From Paludibaculum fermentans (GTDB taxonomy: Bacteria; Acidobacteriota; Terriglobia; Bryobacterales; Bryobacteraceae), in NCBI RefSeq assembly GCF_015277775.1, contig NZ_CP063849.1, positions 4,968,501-5,032,500 of the forward strand: DNA of 64,000 nt. Direction: 5' to 3'. Below the pieces are notes generated by a model. It made no database searches. It was not told the origin of the DNA and worked only from the letters and a program-made list of their open reading frames with translations. Shown here piece after piece: positions 40,401 to 48,562 of the stretch (positions within the stretch are counted from its first letter, which is position 1; each line of letters starts with the position of its first letter). The translations under genes were made by a program, and so were the position numbers.

Positions 40401-41411
40401 ATGATGAAGTTCACACGCCGACACTTTTTCGCTACCAGTACGGGAGCCCTGATCCCGGCCGCCGCGCCGGCTCTCCTCCTCGGGCAGGAGCCGGGACGCC
40501 CCACCTTCCGGGTTAAGGTCGACATGGTGGTGCTCAGCTTCACCGTGACCGACTCCAAGGGCCGCTATGTCAACGGCCTCAAGCCGTCTGATTTCCGCAT
40601 CCTGGAAGACGGCATCTCTCAGAAAGTGAATACCTTCGCCGAGGGCAATAAACCGCCGCTCCAATTGCTGGACGACGGCAGCACCAAGCCCATGGTCACG
40701 GCCCAGGCTGACCCCGAAAAGGGAGGCATCGCCACCGACGCCTTCGTCGGCACCAATGTCTTCGTGCTGTTCGATACGTCCAATTACATGTACCGCGGCT
40801 TCGTCTACGCCTCGGACGCCATCGCCGACTTCGTCCGCGGCCTCGATCGGGCCGACTCCGTCGCCGTCTACACCTTCTCCCGCAACCTCACCCGCGCCGC
40901 TTCCCTGTCCCGCGACCGCAATGACGTCCTGCAGGGTCTGCGCACCGCCGTCGCCGGCGATGACGCGGCTCTTTACAATGCGCTCCTGCTCTCCCTGCGC
41001 GACGCCGCCAAGGTTCCCGGACGCAAGGTGGTCATCGTCTTCTCCAATGGACCCGACTCCGCCTCCATGGTCGCCCCGGACGACGTCCGGGCCGTGGCCG
41101 AGGACGAGGGCATCCCCATCTACGTCATCTCCACCAGTGACGTCAGCCGCGATCCCATCTCCACCGGCGTCTTCCGCCGCCTCGCTTCGCGCACCGGAGG
41201 CAAGAGCTTCTTCGCGAAGACCTGGCAAAAACAGGTGGAAGCCTTCGAAGCCATCCGCGAAGACCTGGGGAACTCCTATACCGTCACTTACTATCCGGCG
41301 CCCAACCCGAATGACGGCTTCCGCAAGATTACCGTTGAGATCAAGAGCGACGTGGCTCGCAAACTCCGGGTCAGTGCTCGTCCCGGCTACCGCCCGAGAA
41401 CTGGCATCTAG
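40401..41411 (+). CDS. VWFA-related acidobacterial protein (Tat-exported)
   Basis: A 336-residue protein with a twin-arginine signal (FTRRHFFATSTGALIPAA). Its body matches the VWFA-related domain typical of Acidobacteria: FRVKVDMVVLSFTVTDSKGRYV, the FRILEDG turn, then a VWA-like core with a modified MIDAS (VLFDTSNYM), VVIVFSNGPDS, and the C-terminal SYTVTYYPAPN. GGAGGG precedes the ATG. The function of this domain is not known; exported VWA proteins usually mediate protein contacts. The cas10 GTG starts 81 bases after its stop. Confidence 0.9.
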   Translation: MMKFTRRHFFATSTGALIPAAAPALLLGQEPGRPTFRVKVDMVVLSFTVTDSKGRYVNGLKPSDFRILEDGISQKVNTFAEGNKPPLQLLDDGSTKPMVTAQADPEKGGIATDAFVGTNVFVLFDTSNYMYRGFVYASDAIADFVRGLDRADSVAVYTFSRNLTRAASLSRDRNDVLQGLRTAVAGDDAALYNALLLSLRDAAKVPGRKVVIVFSNGPDSASMVAPDDVRAVAEDEGIPIYVISTSDVSRDPISTGVFRRLASRTGGKSFFAKTWQKQVEAFEAIREDLGNSYTVTYYPAPNPNDGFRKITVEIKSDVARKLRVSARPGYRPRTGI

Positions 41412-41492
41412 GGGTCCGGAAACCGAAGTTTCGACAACGAGTTCCGCCTCTGTGCTAGATTCAGAATTTGATTGTGGCCTGAGGCAGTCTTC

Positions 41493-42896
41493 GTGCAGAT
41501 TTTCCTTCAAGGCAAGCTCCTAGGCATTGAGCCTTTTATTCGCGACTCGGAAGGCGGCCTCGCGTCGCTGGCCGGACGTTGCCTTCACGTGTCCCTTTTG
41601 TCCGAGGCAATCCCCCGGGCCCTGCTCAAACACCTCGGCCTCGCGCCCGAACTCCTCGGCGCCAGCGGAGGCGGCCACTTCCTCGCCGTCCTCACCGACC
41701 AAAGCCTGCCCGAAGCCAACGCCTTCCTTGTCAACGTCACCCGCCGCCTGGCCGAATTCAGCGGCCACCGCCTGCGCCTCGCCTGGTCCGCCACCGAGAA
41801 TCTCGGAGCCTGGACCGACGTTCGCAAACGCCTCGACGACCAGATGGCCCGTTGGCGCGGCCCCGACGCCCTGGAACCCGAAGGCATCTTTGAGCCCTTC
41901 GCCGACGATTCGCGCCTGAACCGCTTCTTCTCTGACCTCTATCGGGGACTCCCGGCGACCTCCGCCGCCGTCTGGGACGCCGACGCGCCCGGCCTGCTCA
42001 AGGCCGAAGGCGAACAGCATTGGCTGGCCACCCACTATGCGCCGGCCGATTCCGGCCCCCAGCCCGCCTCGCGCCTCGAACTCGCCGCCCGCGCCAACGG
42101 CCGCAAGACCTGGGGCATTCTTCGCGGCGACGCCGACCAGTTCTCCACCCGCCTGCGCAAGGCCCAGAGCATCGAGGAGTACCTCCAGCTCTCCGTTTTC
42201 TTCCGGCAGTTCTTCGCCGGAGAAGTACAAGTCCTTTGTTCCCAGCCCGATTTCCAGAATCGCGTCTCCGTTCTGCACACCGGCGGCGATGAGTTCTCCG
42301 TCATCGGCAGCTGGGACGCCCTCATCCCCTTCGCCCGTGAGATCGAGCGCCTGTTCCAGCGCTCGGCCACGGAACTCCTCCGCGAGTTCCCCGGCGCCGA
42401 AGGCAAGACTCTGTCCATGGCCCTCGCCCTGGCGCCCTCCGCTGATGTCGATCCCGCCAGCGTCTACGCCGAGGCCGGTCACCAGCTCGAAATCGCCAAA
42501 AGCGTGGGCCGCGATTCCATCTCCCTGCTCGGCCGCGTGCTCGACTGGAAACAGGTGGGTGAAGCGGCCGACCTCAAAACCTCCATGCTCCGCCTGGTGG
42601 AGGAGTTCGGCTGCCCTCCGCAGTTCCTCGGCGAGTTGGGTTCGTTTTACAGGGAGACCGATCGCACCCTCCCGGCCCGCTCCACCCGCCGCGCGGCGGA
42701 GGCCCAGCAGCGCCCCTGGCGGCTCCACCGCCGCCTGCATCGCGTCCTGGATGGCCCGGAACGCAACAAAGAGTTTCAGAAGACCCGTAACACGGTGCTG
42801 GCCGCATTTCTCACCCGCGGCCAGGCTCAGTTGAAGCTGAGACCGGCGGGCCGCGTCGCCCTCGAATGGGCGCGATTCTTGGAAGAGGCTGAGTAA
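41493..42896 (+). CDS. csm1: Cas10/Csm1-like protein without HD domain, GGDE palm motif
   Basis: About 467 residues from GTG 41493, chosen because GAGG lies eight bases upstream; the open frame begins at TTG 41472. Cas10 of type III-A is normally 750-850 residues with an N-terminal HD DNase. Here the first residues already match the first palm region (SLAGRCLHVSLLSE at 25-38, SGGGHFL at 58-64). The middle has WGILRGDADQF (207-217) and the second palm has HTGGDEFSVIG with GGDEF at 264-268, in place of GGDD. The end shows DSISLLGRVLDWKQV. No CxxC pair for the usual zinc finger is present. It is the signature and putative cyclic-oligoadenylate synthase subunit, with doubtful activity. Confidence 0.88.
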   Translation: MQIFLQGKLLGIEPFIRDSEGGLASLAGRCLHVSLLSEAIPRALLKHLGLAPELLGASGGGHFLAVLTDQSLPEANAFLVNVTRRLAEFSGHRLRLAWSATENLGAWTDVRKRLDDQMARWRGPDALEPEGIFEPFADDSRLNRFFSDLYRGLPATSAAVWDADAPGLLKAEGEQHWLATHYAPADSGPQPASRLELAARANGRKTWGILRGDADQFSTRLRKAQSIEEYLQLSVFFRQFFAGEVQVLCSQPDFQNRVSVLHTGGDEFSVIGSWDALIPFAREIERLFQRSATELLREFPGAEGKTLSMALALAPSADVDPASVYAEAGHQLEIAKSVGRDSISLLGRVLDWKQVGEAADLKTSMLRLVEEFGCPPQFLGELGSFYRETDRTLPARSTRRAAEAQQRPWRLHRRLHRVLDGPERNKEFQKTRNTVLAAFLTRGQAQLKLRPAGRVALEWARFLEEAE

Positions 42897-42897
42897 T

Positions 42898-43695
42898 ATG
42901 AGCGAACTCGAACCGCAGCAGACCCAACCGGAAGAGACGCAACCGGCTGCGCCCGCGCCCCAGTCTGAACCGGCCGCGGAAACGCGCCAGGAAACCCCAG
43001 CCCCGGCCGAGGCCTCGGCGACGGCTGCAGCTGATCCGGCACCCGCTCCGGCCCCCACGCCCAAGCCGGAGAACAAACCCGAATCCAAACCCAACAACCG
43101 GCCCCCGCAGGAACGCCGCGAACGGCCCGCGGGTGGCGGCGGCCGGCCGGAGCGCCAGCCGCGCGGCGAACGCCCGCCCCAGGGCGACAAGCCCGCCGGT
43201 GACCGCCCGCCCCGCGCCGATCGTCCGGAACGTGGACCCGGCGGCGGCGGCGGCGGCGGCGGCGAACGCCGGCCCGAACGCGAAGGCGACCGCCGCGGCG
43301 GTCCGCGCGAACACGGCAAAGGCCCCGATCGCGGCGGCCGTCCCATGGAGCCGCCGTCCGACATCGATCTCGACAAACTGGTCGCCGATAGCCTTTACCT
43401 CGACAACGCCGCCCACGCCATCGTCGCCCGCATGCGCGACATGGACTCCGGCACCCGCAGCCAGTTGCGCCGCCTCTTCAGTGCGGTGCGCCGCGCCTGC
43501 CGCGCCGCCGAGGGCGAGCGTCAGCACCACTTTGTGATGCTCCGTGCGCGCCTGGCCTACACCATCGCGCGCCACCAGTTGCGCAGCCTCGATCCGCTCG
43601 AGCGGCTTCTGCTCCAGGTCACCCGTAAGAACGACGCCCGCGGCTACGAACGGTTCCGCGACCTCTTCGAGGCCATCGTCGCCTACAACGAATAG
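42898..43695 (+). CDS. csm2: Csm2-like small subunit with long disordered N-terminal extension
   Basis: A 265-residue protein starting one base after the cas10 stop. Residues about 156-265 are a Csm2 helical bundle: TRSQLRRLFSAVRRA, MLRARLAYTIARHQLRSL and the ending RFRDLFEAIVAYNE, matching the conserved EAIVAYh end of Csm2. Normal Csm2 is 120-150 residues. Residues 1-155 are low complexity: Glu/Gln/Pro/Ala first, then Arg/Gly/Pro with ERRERPAGGGGRPE and an eight-glycine run coded by (GGC)8 at 43240-43263. That tract is RGG-like and could bind RNA. Csm2 lines the crRNA-target filament. Confidence 0.87.
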   Translation: MSELEPQQTQPEETQPAAPAPQSEPAAETRQETPAPAEASATAAADPAPAPAPTPKPENKPESKPNNRPPQERRERPAGGGGRPERQPRGERPPQGDKPAGDRPPRADRPERGPGGGGGGGGERRPEREGDRRGGPREHGKGPDRGGRPMEPPSDIDLDKLVADSLYLDNAAHAIVARMRDMDSGTRSQLRRLFSAVRRACRAAEGERQHHFVMLRARLAYTIARHQLRSLDPLERLLLQVTRKNDARGYERFRDLFEAIVAYNE

Positions 43696-43729
43696 CATCC
43701 GTCAGGAAGAAAGATTTCCGGAGTTTCAC

Positions 43730-44563
43730 ATGAGCTCTCACACCGCCGATACCAAGCTCGGATTGATTGGCAAGTTGCTGCTGGATGGCGAGATGATCTG
43801 CGAGACCGGCCTCCACATCGGAGCCGGCAAGGGTTCCCTGGACCTCGGCGGCGCCGATAACCCGGTGGTCAAGGACGCCTTCGGGCGCCCCTACGTCCCG
43901 GGCAGCTCCCTGCGCGGCAAGCTCCGCAGCCTGCTCGAGCAGTCCTCGGGTCTGGTCTCCCCGGCCGACCTGATCTACCTCTCCCGCCGCCGCGGCCAGG
44001 AAGTCCGCATCCACCAGACCGACGATCCGGCTGACGAGGTCGGCGTCCTCTTCGGCCGCAACCCCGGCCGCATGGAGCGGGTCTCCGGCGACGCCCTGGA
44101 GCCGAAATCGGCCACCCCGGCCCGCCTCACCGCCTACGACGCCCCCCTCGACATGGAGTCCATCACCGCCCAGATGCGCGAAAATCTGGACGACGAACTC
44201 ACTGAGGTCAAGAGCGAGAACGCCATCGACCGCATCACCGCCCAGGCCAACGCCCGCACCCTCGAGCGCGTTCCGGCCGGCGCCCGCTTCCGCGTCCGCT
44301 TCGTCGTCGACATCCTTTGCCCGGCTGACCGCGAACTCGTGCCCACCCTGGTGCAGGGTCTTCGCCTCCTCGAAGACGATGCCCTCGGCGGCGGCGGCTC
44401 GCGTGGCAGCGGCCGCGTGCGCTTCGCCAACTGGAAGCTCACCTGGCGCAATAAGGCGTACTACTCCGCCGGTGAGGCCGAACAGGCCCTGCTCGACGCC
44501 GCGGAAACGGCGGCACTCCAGGCCGGTGTCCGCGATCCCGAGTTCTCCGGCAAACTCTCCTGA
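43730..44563 (+). CDS. csm3: Csm3-like Cas7 backbone subunit, catalytic Asp retained
   Basis: A 277-residue RAMP protein. The ATG at 43730 has GGAG six bases upstream; the frame runs back another 62 codons without a matching domain. The block ETGLHIGAGKGSLDLGG is followed by ADNPVVKDAFGRPYVPGSSLRGKLRSLLE, the Csm3 signature. Asp43 aligns with the aspartate (Asp33 in Streptococcus thermophilus Csm3) that cuts target RNA every six nucleotides. The C-terminal glycine-rich loop LGGGGSRGSGRVRF is also present. It is the most conserved subunit here and suggests an active RNA-cleaving backbone. Confidence 0.93.
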   Translation: MSSHTADTKLGLIGKLLLDGEMICETGLHIGAGKGSLDLGGADNPVVKDAFGRPYVPGSSLRGKLRSLLEQSSGLVSPADLIYLSRRRGQEVRIHQTDDPADEVGVLFGRNPGRMERVSGDALEPKSATPARLTAYDAPLDMESITAQMRENLDDELTEVKSENAIDRITAQANARTLERVPAGARFRVRFVVDILCPADRELVPTLVQGLRLLEDDALGGGGSRGSGRVRFANWKLTWRNKAYYSAGEAEQALLDAAETAALQAGVRDPEFSGKLS

Positions 44564-44577
44564 ACGGCGGATTCCCG

Positions 44578-45606
44578 ATGAACCCCGCGCTGCTCATTCG
44601 ACTACGGCCCACCACGCCCTGGCGCATCGGTCCCGATACCGGCGCCCGCGATCAGGCCGTGTCCATCTTCCACAGCGACGCCCTCTATTCGGCGCTGTGC
44701 TCCAGCTTCGAACAGTTGGGCCTGCTGGAAGAGTGGTTCAACGCCACCGCGCAGCCGCACACCGAACCCGCGGTCCGCTTCAGTTCCTGCTTCCCCTGGC
44801 AGCGCGGCCATCTTTACGCCCCGCCCCCCGCCGGTCTGTGGCCTCCCCCCGCCGCCAACCCCACCGCCGCCTCCAAAGTGCGGTGGAAGGGCGCCACCCT
44901 TGTCCCGACCTCGGTCATCGCCGGCCTTGTGAAGGGCGAACAGCCCTCCGAGGAACAGTGGACCGTCGACGGCCACAGCAGTTGCCTCATCCCCGGCAAC
45001 AGCCGCTCGTCTACAGGACCTTTCCGCTTCGTTCAACGCTCCAGCGCCGCCGTCGACCGCGTCACCGGCGGCCAGATCGAGCCCCACCGCGTGACCTGCG
45101 TTCAATACGCGCCAGCCTCCGGCCTGTGGTGCGCCGCCCAGTTTTCGAACCCCATTACCTACGCCGTCTGGGCTCCTAAGTTGCAGGCAGCGTTCCGCTT
45201 ACTGGCCGACACCGGCCTCGGCGGCCTGCGCTCGCGCGGCTTCGGCCGCTTCCGCAATCCCGACTTCCAGCCCGGCCTGCTGCCCGAGTTGCTGTTCGGT
45301 TCCGCCTTGCCCCCGGCAGGCAACGCCTACTGGCTGCTTTCGCTGTTCTCCCCCGCCGATACCGACACCGTCGAGTGGACCGCCGGCGACTACCTGCTCA
45401 CCCGCCGCACCGGCCGCGTCGGGGCATCGCAGGGCGGCGGCCAGCAGAAACTCGCTTCCCGCATGGTCGCCGAAGGCTCGGTGCTGCTCGCCGGACAACC
45501 GCCCCTGGGCGCCGTCCGCGATGTCGCACCGCCCGGCTGCCCGCATCCCGTCTACCGCTCCGGCTACGCCGTGGCGCTGCCCATCCCTTGGCCGGTGACT
45601 GCATGA
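44578..45606 (+). CDS. csm4: Csm4-like Cas5 subunit
   Basis: A 342-residue RAMP protein that in type III-A complexes grips the 5' repeat tag of the crRNA and contacts Cas10. The N-terminus LIRLRPTTPWRIG and SIFHSDALYSALCSSF match Csm4. The glycine-rich loop TGLGGLRSRGFGRF is diagnostic. The middle has a Pro-rich insertion (APPPAGLWPPPAANP). Its stop overlaps the csm5 start (ATGA). Retention of this tag-binding subunit despite no visible array implies that some guide-like RNA is still bound, which is inference. Confidence 0.9.
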   Translation: MNPALLIRLRPTTPWRIGPDTGARDQAVSIFHSDALYSALCSSFEQLGLLEEWFNATAQPHTEPAVRFSSCFPWQRGHLYAPPPAGLWPPPAANPTAASKVRWKGATLVPTSVIAGLVKGEQPSEEQWTVDGHSSCLIPGNSRSSTGPFRFVQRSSAAVDRVTGGQIEPHRVTCVQYAPASGLWCAAQFSNPITYAVWAPKLQAAFRLLADTGLGGLRSRGFGRFRNPDFQPGLLPELLFGSALPPAGNAYWLLSLFSPADTDTVEWTAGDYLLTRRTGRVGASQGGGQQKLASRMVAEGSVLLAGQPPLGAVRDVAPPGCPHPVYRSGYAVALPIPWPVTA

Positions 45607-46781
45607 AGAACTACCGCCTCACCGTCTTGACCCCGCTGCTGGTCGGCGACGGCCAGAAGCTCGCGCCCATTGACTATATGGTCTGGAAAGATCAGGTCAA
45701 TGTCCTCGACCAGCGCCGCATTTTCCGGCTCCTGGCCAAGGGCCCGCGCCTCGACACTTATCTGAATCAGATCCGCAAGGCGGAACGGCTCGACTTCGCC
45801 AGCTGGGGCGGCTATGCCCAGAACTACGCCAGCCGCCGCATCCCCTTCGAGCACCCGTCCTGCGCGCTGTATTACGCCCGTACCTCGCCGGAGCATCTCT
45901 TCATTCCGACCTTCGCCGCCACCCCCACCGGCGGTGTCTACGTACCGGCCAGTGCCGTAAAGGGTCCGTTGCGCACCGCGCTCCTCATCGATCGCGCCAG
46001 CGAAGGCCAGTGGAAGGACTTCGCCGGCCGGCTCGCCGCGCTGGAGCGCATGCCAACTTCGCCCGCCGAAGGTCTCGAGACGTCCACCCTGGGCGCTTCC
46101 GGCGTCAGCCGCACCCGGTCCATGATGCTCGCCGACAGCGACAGCCTCTCCTCCGGCGGCACGACCCGGGTCTACCTCATCCGGACCTCCACCATCCTGC
46201 AGCGAGGCACAAAACTGGAACTCGGCTGGAAGATGAGCCCGCGCGGAGCCGTCGAAGCCCGCCGCCCCACCGATTCCACCCCGATGTTCGCCGAAATGGC
46301 CGTGCCCGGCACGGTCTTCGAGGGCAAATACCAGGACACCCCCGCCATGGCTAGCGCCGAAATGTTGCGCGCCTTACGTTGGAAGGAACCCGCCGGAGCC
46401 CGCCGCTTCGCCCAGGCCGCCAACGCCGCAGCCGCCAAGTTACTGGAAGTGCAGCGAAAGTACGCCGAATCGACCGGTTTGACGGGTGTCGTCGAGTCCA
46501 TCGACCAACTCTCCGCCCGGCTCGCCGCCGTCCGCGAATCGGCCGCTTCCTGCCTCGTCTGCCTCGGCTGGGGCACGGGCATCCTCTCGAAAAGTGCCTC
46601 CATCGACATGGCGGCCGACCCGTTCCGTCAGATTCTCAGGAGCCTGCCTGTTTACAGCCAGCCGCTCCGCTCCGGGCTTCCCTTTCCGAAGACCCGCCGC
46701 GTCGTCTTTATGAACGACCAACCCGCGGCCCTGCCCGGGTGGGCCGAACTGGCGTTCGATGCCACCGGGCACCTCGCCTGA
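45603..46781 (+). CDS. csm5: Csm5-like Cas7 subunit
   Basis: A 392-residue RAMP protein that caps the crRNA 3' end. The start at 45603 overlaps the csm4 stop. Motifs are YRLTVLTPLLVGDGQKLAPIDYMV at the N-terminus, VYVPASAVKGPLRTALL (the PxSxxKG loop), LVCLGWGTGILSKS, and the C-terminal PKTRRVVFM with PGWAEL, all arranged as in Csm5. It is the last gene of the operon; no cas6, csm6, cas1 or cas2 follows. A 60-base reading frame and an ExeA-like ATPase come next. Confidence 0.9.
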   Translation: MKNYRLTVLTPLLVGDGQKLAPIDYMVWKDQVNVLDQRRIFRLLAKGPRLDTYLNQIRKAERLDFASWGGYAQNYASRRIPFEHPSCALYYARTSPEHLFIPTFAATPTGGVYVPASAVKGPLRTALLIDRASEGQWKDFAGRLAALERMPTSPAEGLETSTLGASGVSRTRSMMLADSDSLSSGGTTRVYLIRTSTILQRGTKLELGWKMSPRGAVEARRPTDSTPMFAEMAVPGTVFEGKYQDTPAMASAEMLRALRWKEPAGARRFAQAANAAAAKLLEVQRKYAESTGLTGVVESIDQLSARLAAVRESAASCLVCLGWGTGILSKSASIDMAADPFRQILRSLPVYSQPLRSGLPFPKTRRVVFMNDQPAALPGWAELAFDATGHLA

Positions 46782-46922: not shown

Positions 46923-47828
46923 ATGTATAACGCGTTCTTCGGATTTCGGGAAAACCCATTCAATCTCAGCCCGGATCCCGCGTTCCTCTATCGGAGCCCA
47001 CAGCACGAAGAAGCGCTCGCCAATCTCATCTACGGGGTTCATAGCCGTAAGGGATTCATCGTACTCACCGGCGAGGTCGGCACAGGCAAAACCACCATGC
47101 TCGAATGCATGCGGGACTACCTGGAGTCGCAGTACATCGAGTTCGCCTTCCTCTTCAACTCCCGCATCAACACGGAACAGTTTTTCGAGATGATCGCCTA
47201 CGATCTCGACCTTCGCTGCGCGCATAAGTCGAAGACCGAGGTCCTTTTCGCCCTGAATCAGCTCCTCATCCAGCAAGCCAACGAGGGTCGTACTACAGTA
47301 CTGATCGTTGACGAGGCCCACAATCTGGAATGGGACGTACTGGAAGAGATCCGCCTGCTCGGGAACCTCGAAAACCCCCGCCTCGGCAAGCTCCTCCAAA
47401 TCGTCCTGGCCGGTCAGCCCGAACTCGACCGCAAACTGGATGCCCCCAACCTCCGTCAGCTGAAACAACGCATCGTCCTCCGCTGCACTCTCGCCCCCTT
47501 CGGGCTGGCGGAAGCAACCGAGTACGTCAACTCCCGTTTGCGCAAGGCCGGCATGCCCGATCAGCAGGTCTTCTCTGAGGAAGTAATCAAGGAAGTCCAC
47601 CTGCGCAGCCAGGGCATCCCTCGTCTTATCAACGCGATCTGCGACAACCTCCTGCTCACTGCGTTCGCCCTCGAGAAGAAGACAACCACCATCGAAATGC
47701 TCGACGAAGTCTGCCAGGACATGCGCCTGGAATGGCCCGGCAAGCGTCTCCGCGGCAGGTCGTCGTTCCCCGGGCCCAACGACCCCGCCGAACCTCCGTC
47801 CTTCCTCAGCTCCCGCGAACAATACTAA
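46923..47828 (+). CDS. ExeA/GspA-like AAA+ ATPase
   Basis: A 301-residue ATPase beginning MYNAFFGFRENPFNLSPDPAFLY, the standard ExeA opening. Walker A is TGEVGTGKTT and Walker B is VLIVDEAHNLEW. A sensor-type segment GIPRLINAICDN follows. ExeA-family ATPases work in type II secretion and secretin assembly, in exopolysaccharide export, and as TniB/MuB-like regulators in transposons. No peptidoglycan-binding C-terminal domain is present; the tail is Pro/Ser-rich. It is 141 bases after csm5, so a shared transcript is possible, but its own promoter cannot be excluded. Confidence 0.88.
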   Translation: MYNAFFGFRENPFNLSPDPAFLYRSPQHEEALANLIYGVHSRKGFIVLTGEVGTGKTTMLECMRDYLESQYIEFAFLFNSRINTEQFFEMIAYDLDLRCAHKSKTEVLFALNQLLIQQANEGRTTVLIVDEAHNLEWDVLEEIRLLGNLENPRLGKLLQIVLAGQPELDRKLDAPNLRQLKQRIVLRCTLAPFGLAEATEYVNSRLRKAGMPDQQVFSEEVIKEVHLRSQGIPRLINAICDNLLLTAFALEKKTTTIEMLDEVCQDMRLEWPGKRLRGRSSFPGPNDPAEPPSFLSSREQY

Positions 47829-48085
47829 TAAGGCCAGTAGTACTGGCGGACAATCTTCGCCTCTCTCCCATTGGTACTTCACGTTGAGAAATCGCCCTAA
47901 GGCCCTCTAGAAAAACCACTTAGTCAACATTAGGGATTAGTCTATCCTAGTACCTAGGATAAATCCTATCCATTGGCACCTTCGTCCTCCCATAAGCTCA
48001 GGTAGAACCCTTAGTAATGGGGACCAAAAATTTGGATGCCGGCGCAAACCGGTCTCTATTTGTGCACTGCGAAGGTAGCCACCAA
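47829..48085. promoter_or_regulatory. AT-richer intergenic region with perfect dyads before the repeat protein
   Basis: Two perfect palindromes stand out: GCCAGTA-G-TACTGGC (47833-47847) and ATCCTAG-TAC-CTAGGAT (47944-47960). CCCTAA/TTAGGG (47895-47900 and 47930-47935) form a third pair. The region is clearly more AT-rich than the genes around it and should contain the promoter of the repeat-peptide gene. Towards the start codon (48018-48083) there is a GGCGCAAACC...GAAGGTAGCC arrangement that faintly recalls c-di-GMP riboswitches. Confidence 0.4.
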
Positions 48086-48562
48086 ATGTGCAAGAAAATT
48101 AGCCTGAGCGTCGTCTGTGCTACACTTTTCGTGTTCTCAGCCGCATCATTCGCGGCTGTTGTACCCGTCAGCACAGGTCTGAATGCCCCGTCTATCAGTC
48201 CTTTACCGCCCCCCGATCCCTGGGGTGACGGGCTGTCCATCAGCCCGCTGCCGCCTCCCGATCCCTGGGGTGATGGCCTCTCCATCAGCCCACTACCCCC
48301 ACCCGATCCGTGGGGCGACGGCCTCTCCATCAGCCCTCTGCCTCCGCCTGATCCCTGGGGCGACGGTCTCTCCATCAGCCCCCTGCCTCCGCCTGATCCC
48401 TGGGGCGACGGTCTATTCATCAGCCCTCTGCCTCCGCCTGATCCTTGGGGCGACGGTCTGTCCATCAGCCCGCTCCCTCCGCCCGATCCGTGGGGCGACG
48501 GTCTCTCGATCAGCCCGCTCCCTCCCCCTGATCCCTGGGGCGACGGCCTCAGCATCCGTTAG
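48086..48562 (+). CDS. secreted protein of eight 15-residue repeats
   Basis: A 158-residue protein from ATG 48086 (an upstream in-frame start at 48017 would disrupt the signal). The signal peptide is MCKKISLSVVCATLFVFSAASFA. After a short spacer (AVVPVSTGLNAP), eight copies of SISPLPPPDPWGDGL run to the end, capped by SIR. Only one copy differs (F for S at position 1). The pattern resembles multi-copy peptide precursors or low-complexity surface proteins. Pro/Asp/Trp/Gly content predicts an extended, calcium-binding-prone chain. No processing enzyme is obvious nearby except the unrelated TldD pair 35 kb away. The function is unknown. Confidence 0.8.
   Translation: MCKKISLSVVCATLFVFSAASFAAVVPVSTGLNAPSISPLPPPDPWGDGLSISPLPPPDPWGDGLSISPLPPPDPWGDGLSISPLPPPDPWGDGLSISPLPPPDPWGDGLFISPLPPPDPWGDGLSISPLPPPDPWGDGLSISPLPPPDPWGDGLSIR
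48191..48550 (+). repeat. eight tandem 45-bp repeats inside the coding region
   Basis: Each 45-base unit codes one 15-residue repeat, with about 85-95% identity between units. Differences are mostly at third codon positions, so the peptide is under selection while the DNA has drifted, with likely copy-number change by slippage or recombination. Confidence 0.93.

What the first reader, a model, noticed from the sequence alone, without database searches (positions are those of the whole stretch)
41493..46781. Array-less, stripped type III-A (Csm) operon with HD-less Cas10
The order cas10-csm2-csm3-csm4-csm5 is complete and tightly packed, but there is no CRISPR array, no cas6, no cas1/cas2 and no CARF/HEPN effector in 64 kb. 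Cas10 lacks the HD DNase, and Csm2 carries a long extra tail. The base composition matches neighbours, so the operon looks resident and not freshly acquired. Seen: gene set and motifs. Known: canonical III-A uses Cas6-processed crRNA and signals through Csm6. Inferred: the complex may load guides from a distant array or from cellular RNAs and act as an RNA-binding or RNA-cleaving regulator.
Basis: partly seen in the sequence, partly recalled or inferred. Interest (0 to 1): 0.88.

Follow-up and report, generated by a model that had tools for sequence, protein, structure and literature searches.

The report
Core CRISPR machine without CRISPR memory
Most sequenced members of one family of soil bacteria carry, as a stably inherited gene set, the protein machine of a CRISPR immune system with no CRISPR memory found beside it, so this machine has likely been repurposed for an everyday RNA-control job.

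Summary
Window 41493-46781 is cas10-csm2-csm3-csm4-csm5, with no array, cas1, cas6 or CARF gene found in the window. Cas10 occurs in 214 of 257 genomes of the order, all 214 in one family of 237. In the best 80 of 156 named loci Csm3 is 69-98% identical to the window's, and all 61 loci that show five genes have them in the same order. The Cas10 tree follows RpoB (Mantel r 0.91). dN/dS is 0.03-0.06 for four of the five genes between two relatives that both lack Cas1. None of the 80 loci holds an array; 5 of 12 ordinary III-A loci of the phylum do. The HD DNase is gone, the Csm3 cutting aspartate is invariant (82 of 82), the cyclase motif is mostly kept. A stand-alone Cas6 lies 2.7 Mb away, again without an array. 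Best reading: a domesticated Csm complex, likely RNA-guided, with guides not taken from CRISPR arrays. The guides are unknown, and genome-wide absence of arrays was tested only by repeat-tag patterns. Eight paper searches found no description.

The parts
41451..41461 (+). promoter-like word TGTGCTAGATT upstream of cas10
   Evidence: Position checked; TGTGCTA occurs in 22 of 65 upstream stretches of related loci, top 7-mer count 8 in a shuffle. That it is a promoter is inferred.
41493..42896 (+). cas10 (Csm1) without HD domain; palm2 motif GGDEF at 42282-42296
   Evidence: motif position; motif counts
42898..43695 (+). csm2: R/G/P-rich N-terminal extension, conserved core from about 43360
43721..44563 (+). 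csm3; presumed RNA-cutting Asp46 codon at 43856-43858
   Evidence: the catalytic role of this Asp in known Csm3 is recalled
44578..45606 (+). csm4
45603..46781 (+). csm5, start overlapping the csm4 stop
   Evidence: scanned from 45600, one codon early
46923..47828 (+). flanking AAA ATPase (TIGR03015-like), frequent neighbour, not claimed as part of the complex
   Evidence: 294.5 bits, under its cut-off of 324.5; within 600 bases of csm5 in 33 of 59 loci with enough sequence, elsewhere in 6 more
40401..41411 (+). flanking VWA-domain gene, used as a comparison for selection

Best explanation
This operon encodes the proteins of a Csm (type III-A) effector complex that one bacterial family inherits as a core operon with no CRISPR array beside it, and it likely acts as an RNA-guided RNA-cutting complex whose guides are predicted to come from cellular transcripts trimmed by a stand-alone Cas6. 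Shown: gene set and order, presence in 214 of 237 family genomes, vertical descent, strong purifying selection between relatives without Cas1, loss of the HD DNase, invariance of the Csm3 aspartate, a mostly kept cyclase motif, and a protein with a predicted Cas6 fold elsewhere in the genome. Inferred: that the five proteins assemble, that the complex is loaded with RNA, that Cas6 makes that RNA, that the targets are the cell's own transcripts, and that Cas10 still makes a nucleotide signal in most lineages.
For: Core and family-wide: Cas10 in 214 of 257 genomes of the order, all in one family; five genes in order in 61 of 61 loci with all five. Vertical: Cas10 and RpoB distances r 0.909, 0 of 5000 permutations, 14 of 21 splits shared. 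Constrained without Cas1: dN/dS 0.033 cas10, 0.037 csm3, 0.047 csm4, 0.056 csm5 (Cas1 absent in both genomes). Array-less loci: 0 of 80 against 5 of 12 canonical III-A loci of the phylum. Cas10-positive genomes without a Cas1 match: 100 of 214, of which 86 have a Cas6 match. Csm3 Asp46 82 of 82, palm2 motif in a published likely-active form in 74 of 79. Cas6 fold of the stand-alone protein. No match in viral contigs and only <60% identity on plasmids.
Against: No guide RNA was found. Cas1 is commoner in Cas10-positive (114 of 214) than Cas10-negative (6 of 23) family genomes, p 0.016, which favours a link with ordinary CRISPR, though incomplete assemblies confound it. Cas6 is missing in 24 of 214 Cas10-positive genomes and present in 13 of 23 Cas10-negative ones, and it evolves faster (dN/dS 0.23-0.43). 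Against more distant relatives the dN/dS of the Csm genes is 2-4 times that of the flanking genes. Whole-genome absence of arrays rests on tag patterns only. Five of 79 Cas10 rows have a palm2 motif outside the published active forms.
Confidence: 0.42

Rival explanations
1. An ordinary defence effector that borrows crRNAs in trans from arrays of other CRISPR systems in the same cell.
For: Cas1 matches occur in 120 of 237 family genomes and are commoner with Cas10; arrays exist in family genomes, e.g. a congener has a large Cas1-linked array region and four more loci have arrays. Use of another system's crRNAs by a type III complex is described for Marinomonas (PMC5576922, abstract start seen; the crRNA sharing itself is recalled).
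Against: 100 of 214 Cas10-positive genomes show no Cas1; the window's genome has no Cas1 and no array by the tag patterns; strong constraint between two Cas1-less relatives; core, vertical distribution unlike a defence system.
Confidence: 0.25
2. A split III-A immune system whose array in this genome has repeats that the patterns used here cannot see, served by the distant Cas6.
For: A Cas6 is present 2.7 Mb away; the tag patterns cover the repeat ends seen in the family but not those of some outgroup arrays.
Against: No Cas1; none of 80 related loci has an array; none in 40 kb around Cas6; none in the Cas6 loci of relatives that were fetched.
Confidence: 0.13
3. A guide-free complex: the Csm scaffold binds RNA without a base-pairing guide and serves as an RNA-binding or nucleotide-signalling device.
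For: No guide candidate found; R/G/P-rich Csm2 extension; cyclase motif kept in most rows.
Against: All guide-binding and cap subunits are kept together in 61 of 61 loci and the Csm3 cutting Asp is invariant; Cas6 co-occurs in 190 of 214 genomes.
Confidence: 0.12
4. A decaying remnant of an immune locus.
For: HD domain, array and cas1 are missing.
Against: dN/dS 0.03-0.06 for four genes; open frames, with one stop in 3 of the listed matches; conserved active-site residues.
Confidence: 0.02

Closest known systems
Type III-A (Csm) CRISPR-Cas effector complexes with solved structures
   Same: All five subunit families; Cas10 model matches Csm1 chains of Csm complexes best, E 1.4e-17; Csm3 motif aligned with solved Csm3
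   Different: No HD domain, no array, no cas1, no adjacent cas6 or CARF gene; core and vertical in a family
Canonical III-A loci of other Acidobacteriota (L236-L247)
   Same: Same gene order cas10 to csm5 in the four listed (L236, L237, L239, L247), judged from ORF sizes and sequence starts
   Different: Longer Cas10 with HD in the two scanned, Cas6 (two scanned) and CARF-type genes nearby, arrays in 5 of 12; Csm3 at most 47% identical over most of its length
Type III subtypes in which most loci lack arrays (III-B, III-C, III-E, III-F; PMC12669027, passages)
   Same: Effector operon without an adjacent array
   Different: That figure legend does not list III-A; family-wide vertical inheritance is not described in the passages seen
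Cas6 pre-crRNA endoribonucleases
   Same: PF10040 over cut-off; fold matches solved Cas6, best E 1.4e-12; NCBI names close relatives Cas6
   Different: Stand-alone, follows an NHL-repeat gene in 14 of 14 nearest relatives (L117-L130) and in 0 of the next 16 loci, no array

Membership tests
Type III-A effector complex (Csm) | Cas10/Csm1 plus Csm2, Csm3, Csm4, Csm5 in one operon | tested here: met
   four over cut-off, Cas10 under its full-length cut-off; fold
Type III-A effector complex (Csm) | RNA-cutting Asp in Csm3 | tested here: met
   82 of 82 rows, aligned with solved Csm3; role recalled
Type III-A effector complex (Csm) | Cyclase palm with GGDD-type motif | tested here: met
   GGDEF in the window; 74 of 79 rows in forms listed as likely active
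Type III-A effector complex (Csm) | HD DNase in Cas10 (common, not universal) | tested here: not met
   present in 65% of III-A by PMC11229360
Type III-A effector complex (Csm) | Binds a guide RNA and cuts matching RNA | not testable with these tools
   Needs the purified complex
CRISPR-Cas adaptive immune system | CRISPR array at the locus | tested here: not met
   Window; 0 of 80 related loci
CRISPR-Cas adaptive immune system | CRISPR array anywhere in the genome | tested here: inconclusive
   Tag-pair patterns: 0, 3 (control 0) and 17 (control 7) pairs, no array; a full repeat scan was not possible
CRISPR-Cas adaptive immune system | Cas1 in the genome | tested here: not met
   control rings in 9 of 14 genomes
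CRISPR-Cas adaptive immune system | Cas6 in the genome | tested here: met
CRISPR-Cas adaptive immune system | CARF effector for a cyclic nucleotide signal | tested here: inconclusive
   Csx1_CARF 0 of 257 genomes, but this model also misses or scores under cut-off the CARF-like genes of two canonical loci

The most novel reading that the evidence does not exclude
A whole CRISPR effector complex domesticated as core housekeeping machinery: an RNA-guided RNA cutter and signaller inherited vertically across a bacterial family, whose guides are non-CRISPR cellular RNAs made by a stand-alone Cas6.
Probability: 0.38. Interest if true: 0.93.

Novelty: new variant of a known kind. Interest (0 to 1): 0.8.

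Why it matters
CRISPR effectors are normally patchy, moved horizontally and tied to arrays (general knowledge). A Csm complex that is core, vertically inherited and strongly constrained, and that persists in about 100 genomes with no Cas1 match, would be a clear case of a multi-subunit CRISPR machine turned into ordinary cell biology. It makes an open question (do effector complexes serve non-immune RNA regulation?) directly testable in culturable, non-pathogenic soil bacteria, by sequencing the RNA bound to Csm3.

Tried and rejected
Embedded guide RNA in the operon: silent-site identity over 17-102 sequences per gene showed only local fluctuation, although silent divergence of csm2 and csm3 is lower than that of the flanking genes in the closest pair and in three of four more distant ones. 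Guide RNA in the flanks: mostly promoter-like or coding words were enriched. Rfam gave only rRNA and tRNA in the window. Array near Cas6: none in 40 kb. Array-like calls in Csm loci: 13 in a first setting, of which one (L089: 70, 56) has periods that are not multiples of 3; 4 in the second setting, all multiples of 3. In G145 a 64-base repeat near the operon proved to be a palindromic element whose 'spacers' repeat too and that also occurs singly. CARF in the window: the hit is a LuxR response regulator. Mobile-element origin: no viral contig, plasmid matches all under 60% identity. A sequence search of solved structures with the Cas6 profile gave only E 0.5, so the fold search was needed. The first tree comparison used wrong ORFs for some RpoB rows (Mantel r -0.06) and was corrected. 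One search stopped on a script error after the control loci; the core loci were run. Two overlapping tag pairs at 3.94 Mb of the own genome are a twice-repeated 87-base unit, not an array. Papers: eight searches listed none on an array-less core Csm operon. Passages seen: PMC12669027, PMC11778308, PMC11742911 (array-bearing acidobacterial systems), PMC8759368, PMC11229360. PMC8759368 reports a Bryobacteraceae genome without CRISPRs, but by size and contig count it may be G078, which lacks Cas10, so it was not used as support.
Full report
What is there. The operon at 41493-46781 encodes Cas10, Csm2, Csm3, Csm4 and Csm5. Cas10 is 467 residues from the likely GTG start and aligns from residue ~235-249 of HD-bearing Csm1 proteins. 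Its AlphaFold2 model (pLDDT 85.3) matches Csm1 chains best (E 1.4e-17). Two canonical III-A Cas10s of the phylum carry a Pfam HD domain; this one does not. Csm2 has a conserved C-terminal core after an R/G/P-rich N-terminal extension; in the 72 of 83 rows where the core could be located, sampled lengths of the extension run from 40 to 151 residues.

Active sites. Csm3 Asp46 lies in GG[AS]DNPV[VI]KD in 82 of 82 rows and aligns with the same motif in solved Csm3 chains; that this Asp cuts target RNA is recalled, not tested. The palm2 motif is GGDDF in 57, GGDEF in 14 (the window among them), AGDDF in 2, GSDDF in 2, and GGNDF, GGHGF, GEDDF and EGDGF in one each, of 79 rows. A survey lists GGDE, AGDD and GEDD among variants seen in loci with known effectors (PMC11229360, passages), so 74 of 79 would count as likely active and 5 not. 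D213 and D215 of the first palm2 motif and D266 are invariant in a 48-row alignment.

A core operon. Cas10 was found in 214 of 257 genomes of the order; all 214 belong to one family, which by handle numbering has 237 members; the 20 genomes of other families gave none. Named relatives are mostly labelled Bryobacteraceae, Bryobacterales, Solibacter or Paludibaculum, so I call the family Bryobacteraceae; that name is inferred. Among 163 good genomes of the order 143 have it. Family members without it include all five of genus g29 and G078 (98% complete), so losses occur. In a 396-genome sample of the phylum 33 have any Csm3 match; three are of this family (all three at 73-100% identity), and the other matches that cover most of the protein are at most 47% identical. 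Of 156 named loci with a Csm3 relative the best 80 were kept; in these Csm3 is 69-98% identical to the window, and all 61 with five genes have them in one order and strand; the other 19 lack cas10 or csm5 with their detected genes ending within 0.9 kb of a locus end.

Vertical descent and selection. For 24 genomes with both genes, Cas10 and RpoB tree distances correlate at r 0.909 (0 of 5000 permutations) and 14 of 21 splits are shared; genera g49, g63 and g65 are clades in both trees, genus g1 only in the RpoB tree. Six of the 30 genomes asked had no RpoB hit and were dropped. Against L037, which gives the same values as L008 of genome G205 for the three genes that both cover, dN/dS is 0.033 for cas10, 0.037 csm3, 0.047 csm4, 0.056 csm5, 0.113 for whole csm2 and 0.075 for its core, against 0.028 and 0.020 for the flanking genes. 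G205 and the window's genome both lack a Cas1 match. With four more distant relatives the values are 0.11-0.28 for the five genes (0.05-0.06 for the csm2 core) and 0.04-0.08 for the flanking genes, so over longer times the operon is less constrained than its neighbours; partial saturation of silent sites may add to this.

No array. The detector finds arrays in family Cas1 loci (L177, L183, L184 and, as a short run, L180, of eight short loci, and L185), in 4 of 15 further fetched regions and in 5 of 12 canonical III-A loci of the phylum, several of these on short contigs. It finds none in 80 Csm loci (1.17 Mb); its 4 calls there have coding periods. The own genome has no Cas1. Tag-pair patterns gave 0, 3 (control 0) and 17 (control 7) pairs; no array runs through any of the 17 distinct places. 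This covers the repeat ends that I saw in the family, not every possible repeat. Of 214 Cas10-positive family genomes 114 have Cas1 and 100 do not; fragmented assemblies make the second number an upper bound. Cas1 is rarer in Cas10-negative genomes (6 of 23, p 0.016), which is against my reading unless incompleteness explains it.

A stand-alone Cas6. The own genome has one Cas6, modelled at pLDDT 89.5 and matched to solved Cas6. It follows an NHL-repeat gene, as in 14 of 14 nearest relatives (L117-L130) and in none of the next 16 loci; none of these fetched Cas6 loci shows an array. A Cas6 hit occurs in 203 of 257 genomes: 190 of 214 Cas10-positive and 13 of 23 Cas10-negative family genomes; among genomes without Cas1, 86 of 100 and 10 of 17. 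Some hits lie near Cas1 and belong to ordinary CRISPR loci. It changes faster than the Csm genes (dN/dS 0.23-0.43).

Mechanism. The kept backbone, caps and cutting residue point to an RNA-loaded complex that cuts RNA; the kept palm points to a nucleotide signal in most lineages; the lost HD argues against DNA cleavage. Guides from cellular RNA trimmed by the stand-alone Cas6 fit the co-existence of Csm and Cas6 without Cas1 in 86 genomes, but no such RNA was found. I put this ahead of guides borrowed from arrays because constraint is strong, nearly that of the flanking genes, between two Cas1-less relatives, and because the operon behaves as core genome.

Limits. Many of the genomes are fragmented assemblies. 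The CARF test used one insensitive family. HEPN, cas2 and other effectors were not searched genome-wide. Assembly of the complex, RNA binding and catalysis are untested.

Noticed in passing
48017-48562: Protein made largely of 15-residue repeats (SISPLPPPDPWGDGL; 45-base DNA repeat); repeat genes with 45- or 54-base periods lie downstream of the ATPase in several other loci.
   Followed up: no
46923-47828: AAA ATPase like TIGR03015 sits just downstream of csm5 in 33 of 59 loci and elsewhere in 6 more; whether it has anything to do with the complex is unknown.
   Followed up: partly
L249 250-1080, 2600-3000, 19092-19990: Palindromic intergenic repeat in genome G145 (TTCCCCTCGCGC..GCGCGAGGGCTGCATCCC) in tandem runs of about 64 bases and as single copies; looks CRISPR-like to a simple detector but its 'spacers' repeat too.
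   Followed up: partly
L185 2064-9235: Congener G208 has a Cas1-linked array region with at least 59 copies of a repeat end (GCTTCAATGRGGCCGCAAC...), while the window's genome has no Cas1.
   Followed up: partly
L042, L058: Loci labelled Arcobacter and Bordetella parapertussis carry this family's operon at 79% and 73% Csm3 identity; probably mislabelled metagenome bins.
   Followed up: no
43402-44560: Silent divergence of csm2 core and csm3 is lower than that of the flanking genes in the closest pair and in three of four more distant ones, without a sharp local peak.
   Followed up: partly
genus g29 (G109-G113): All five genomes of this genus lack Cas10; a possible natural deletion for comparing gene content.
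   Followed up: no
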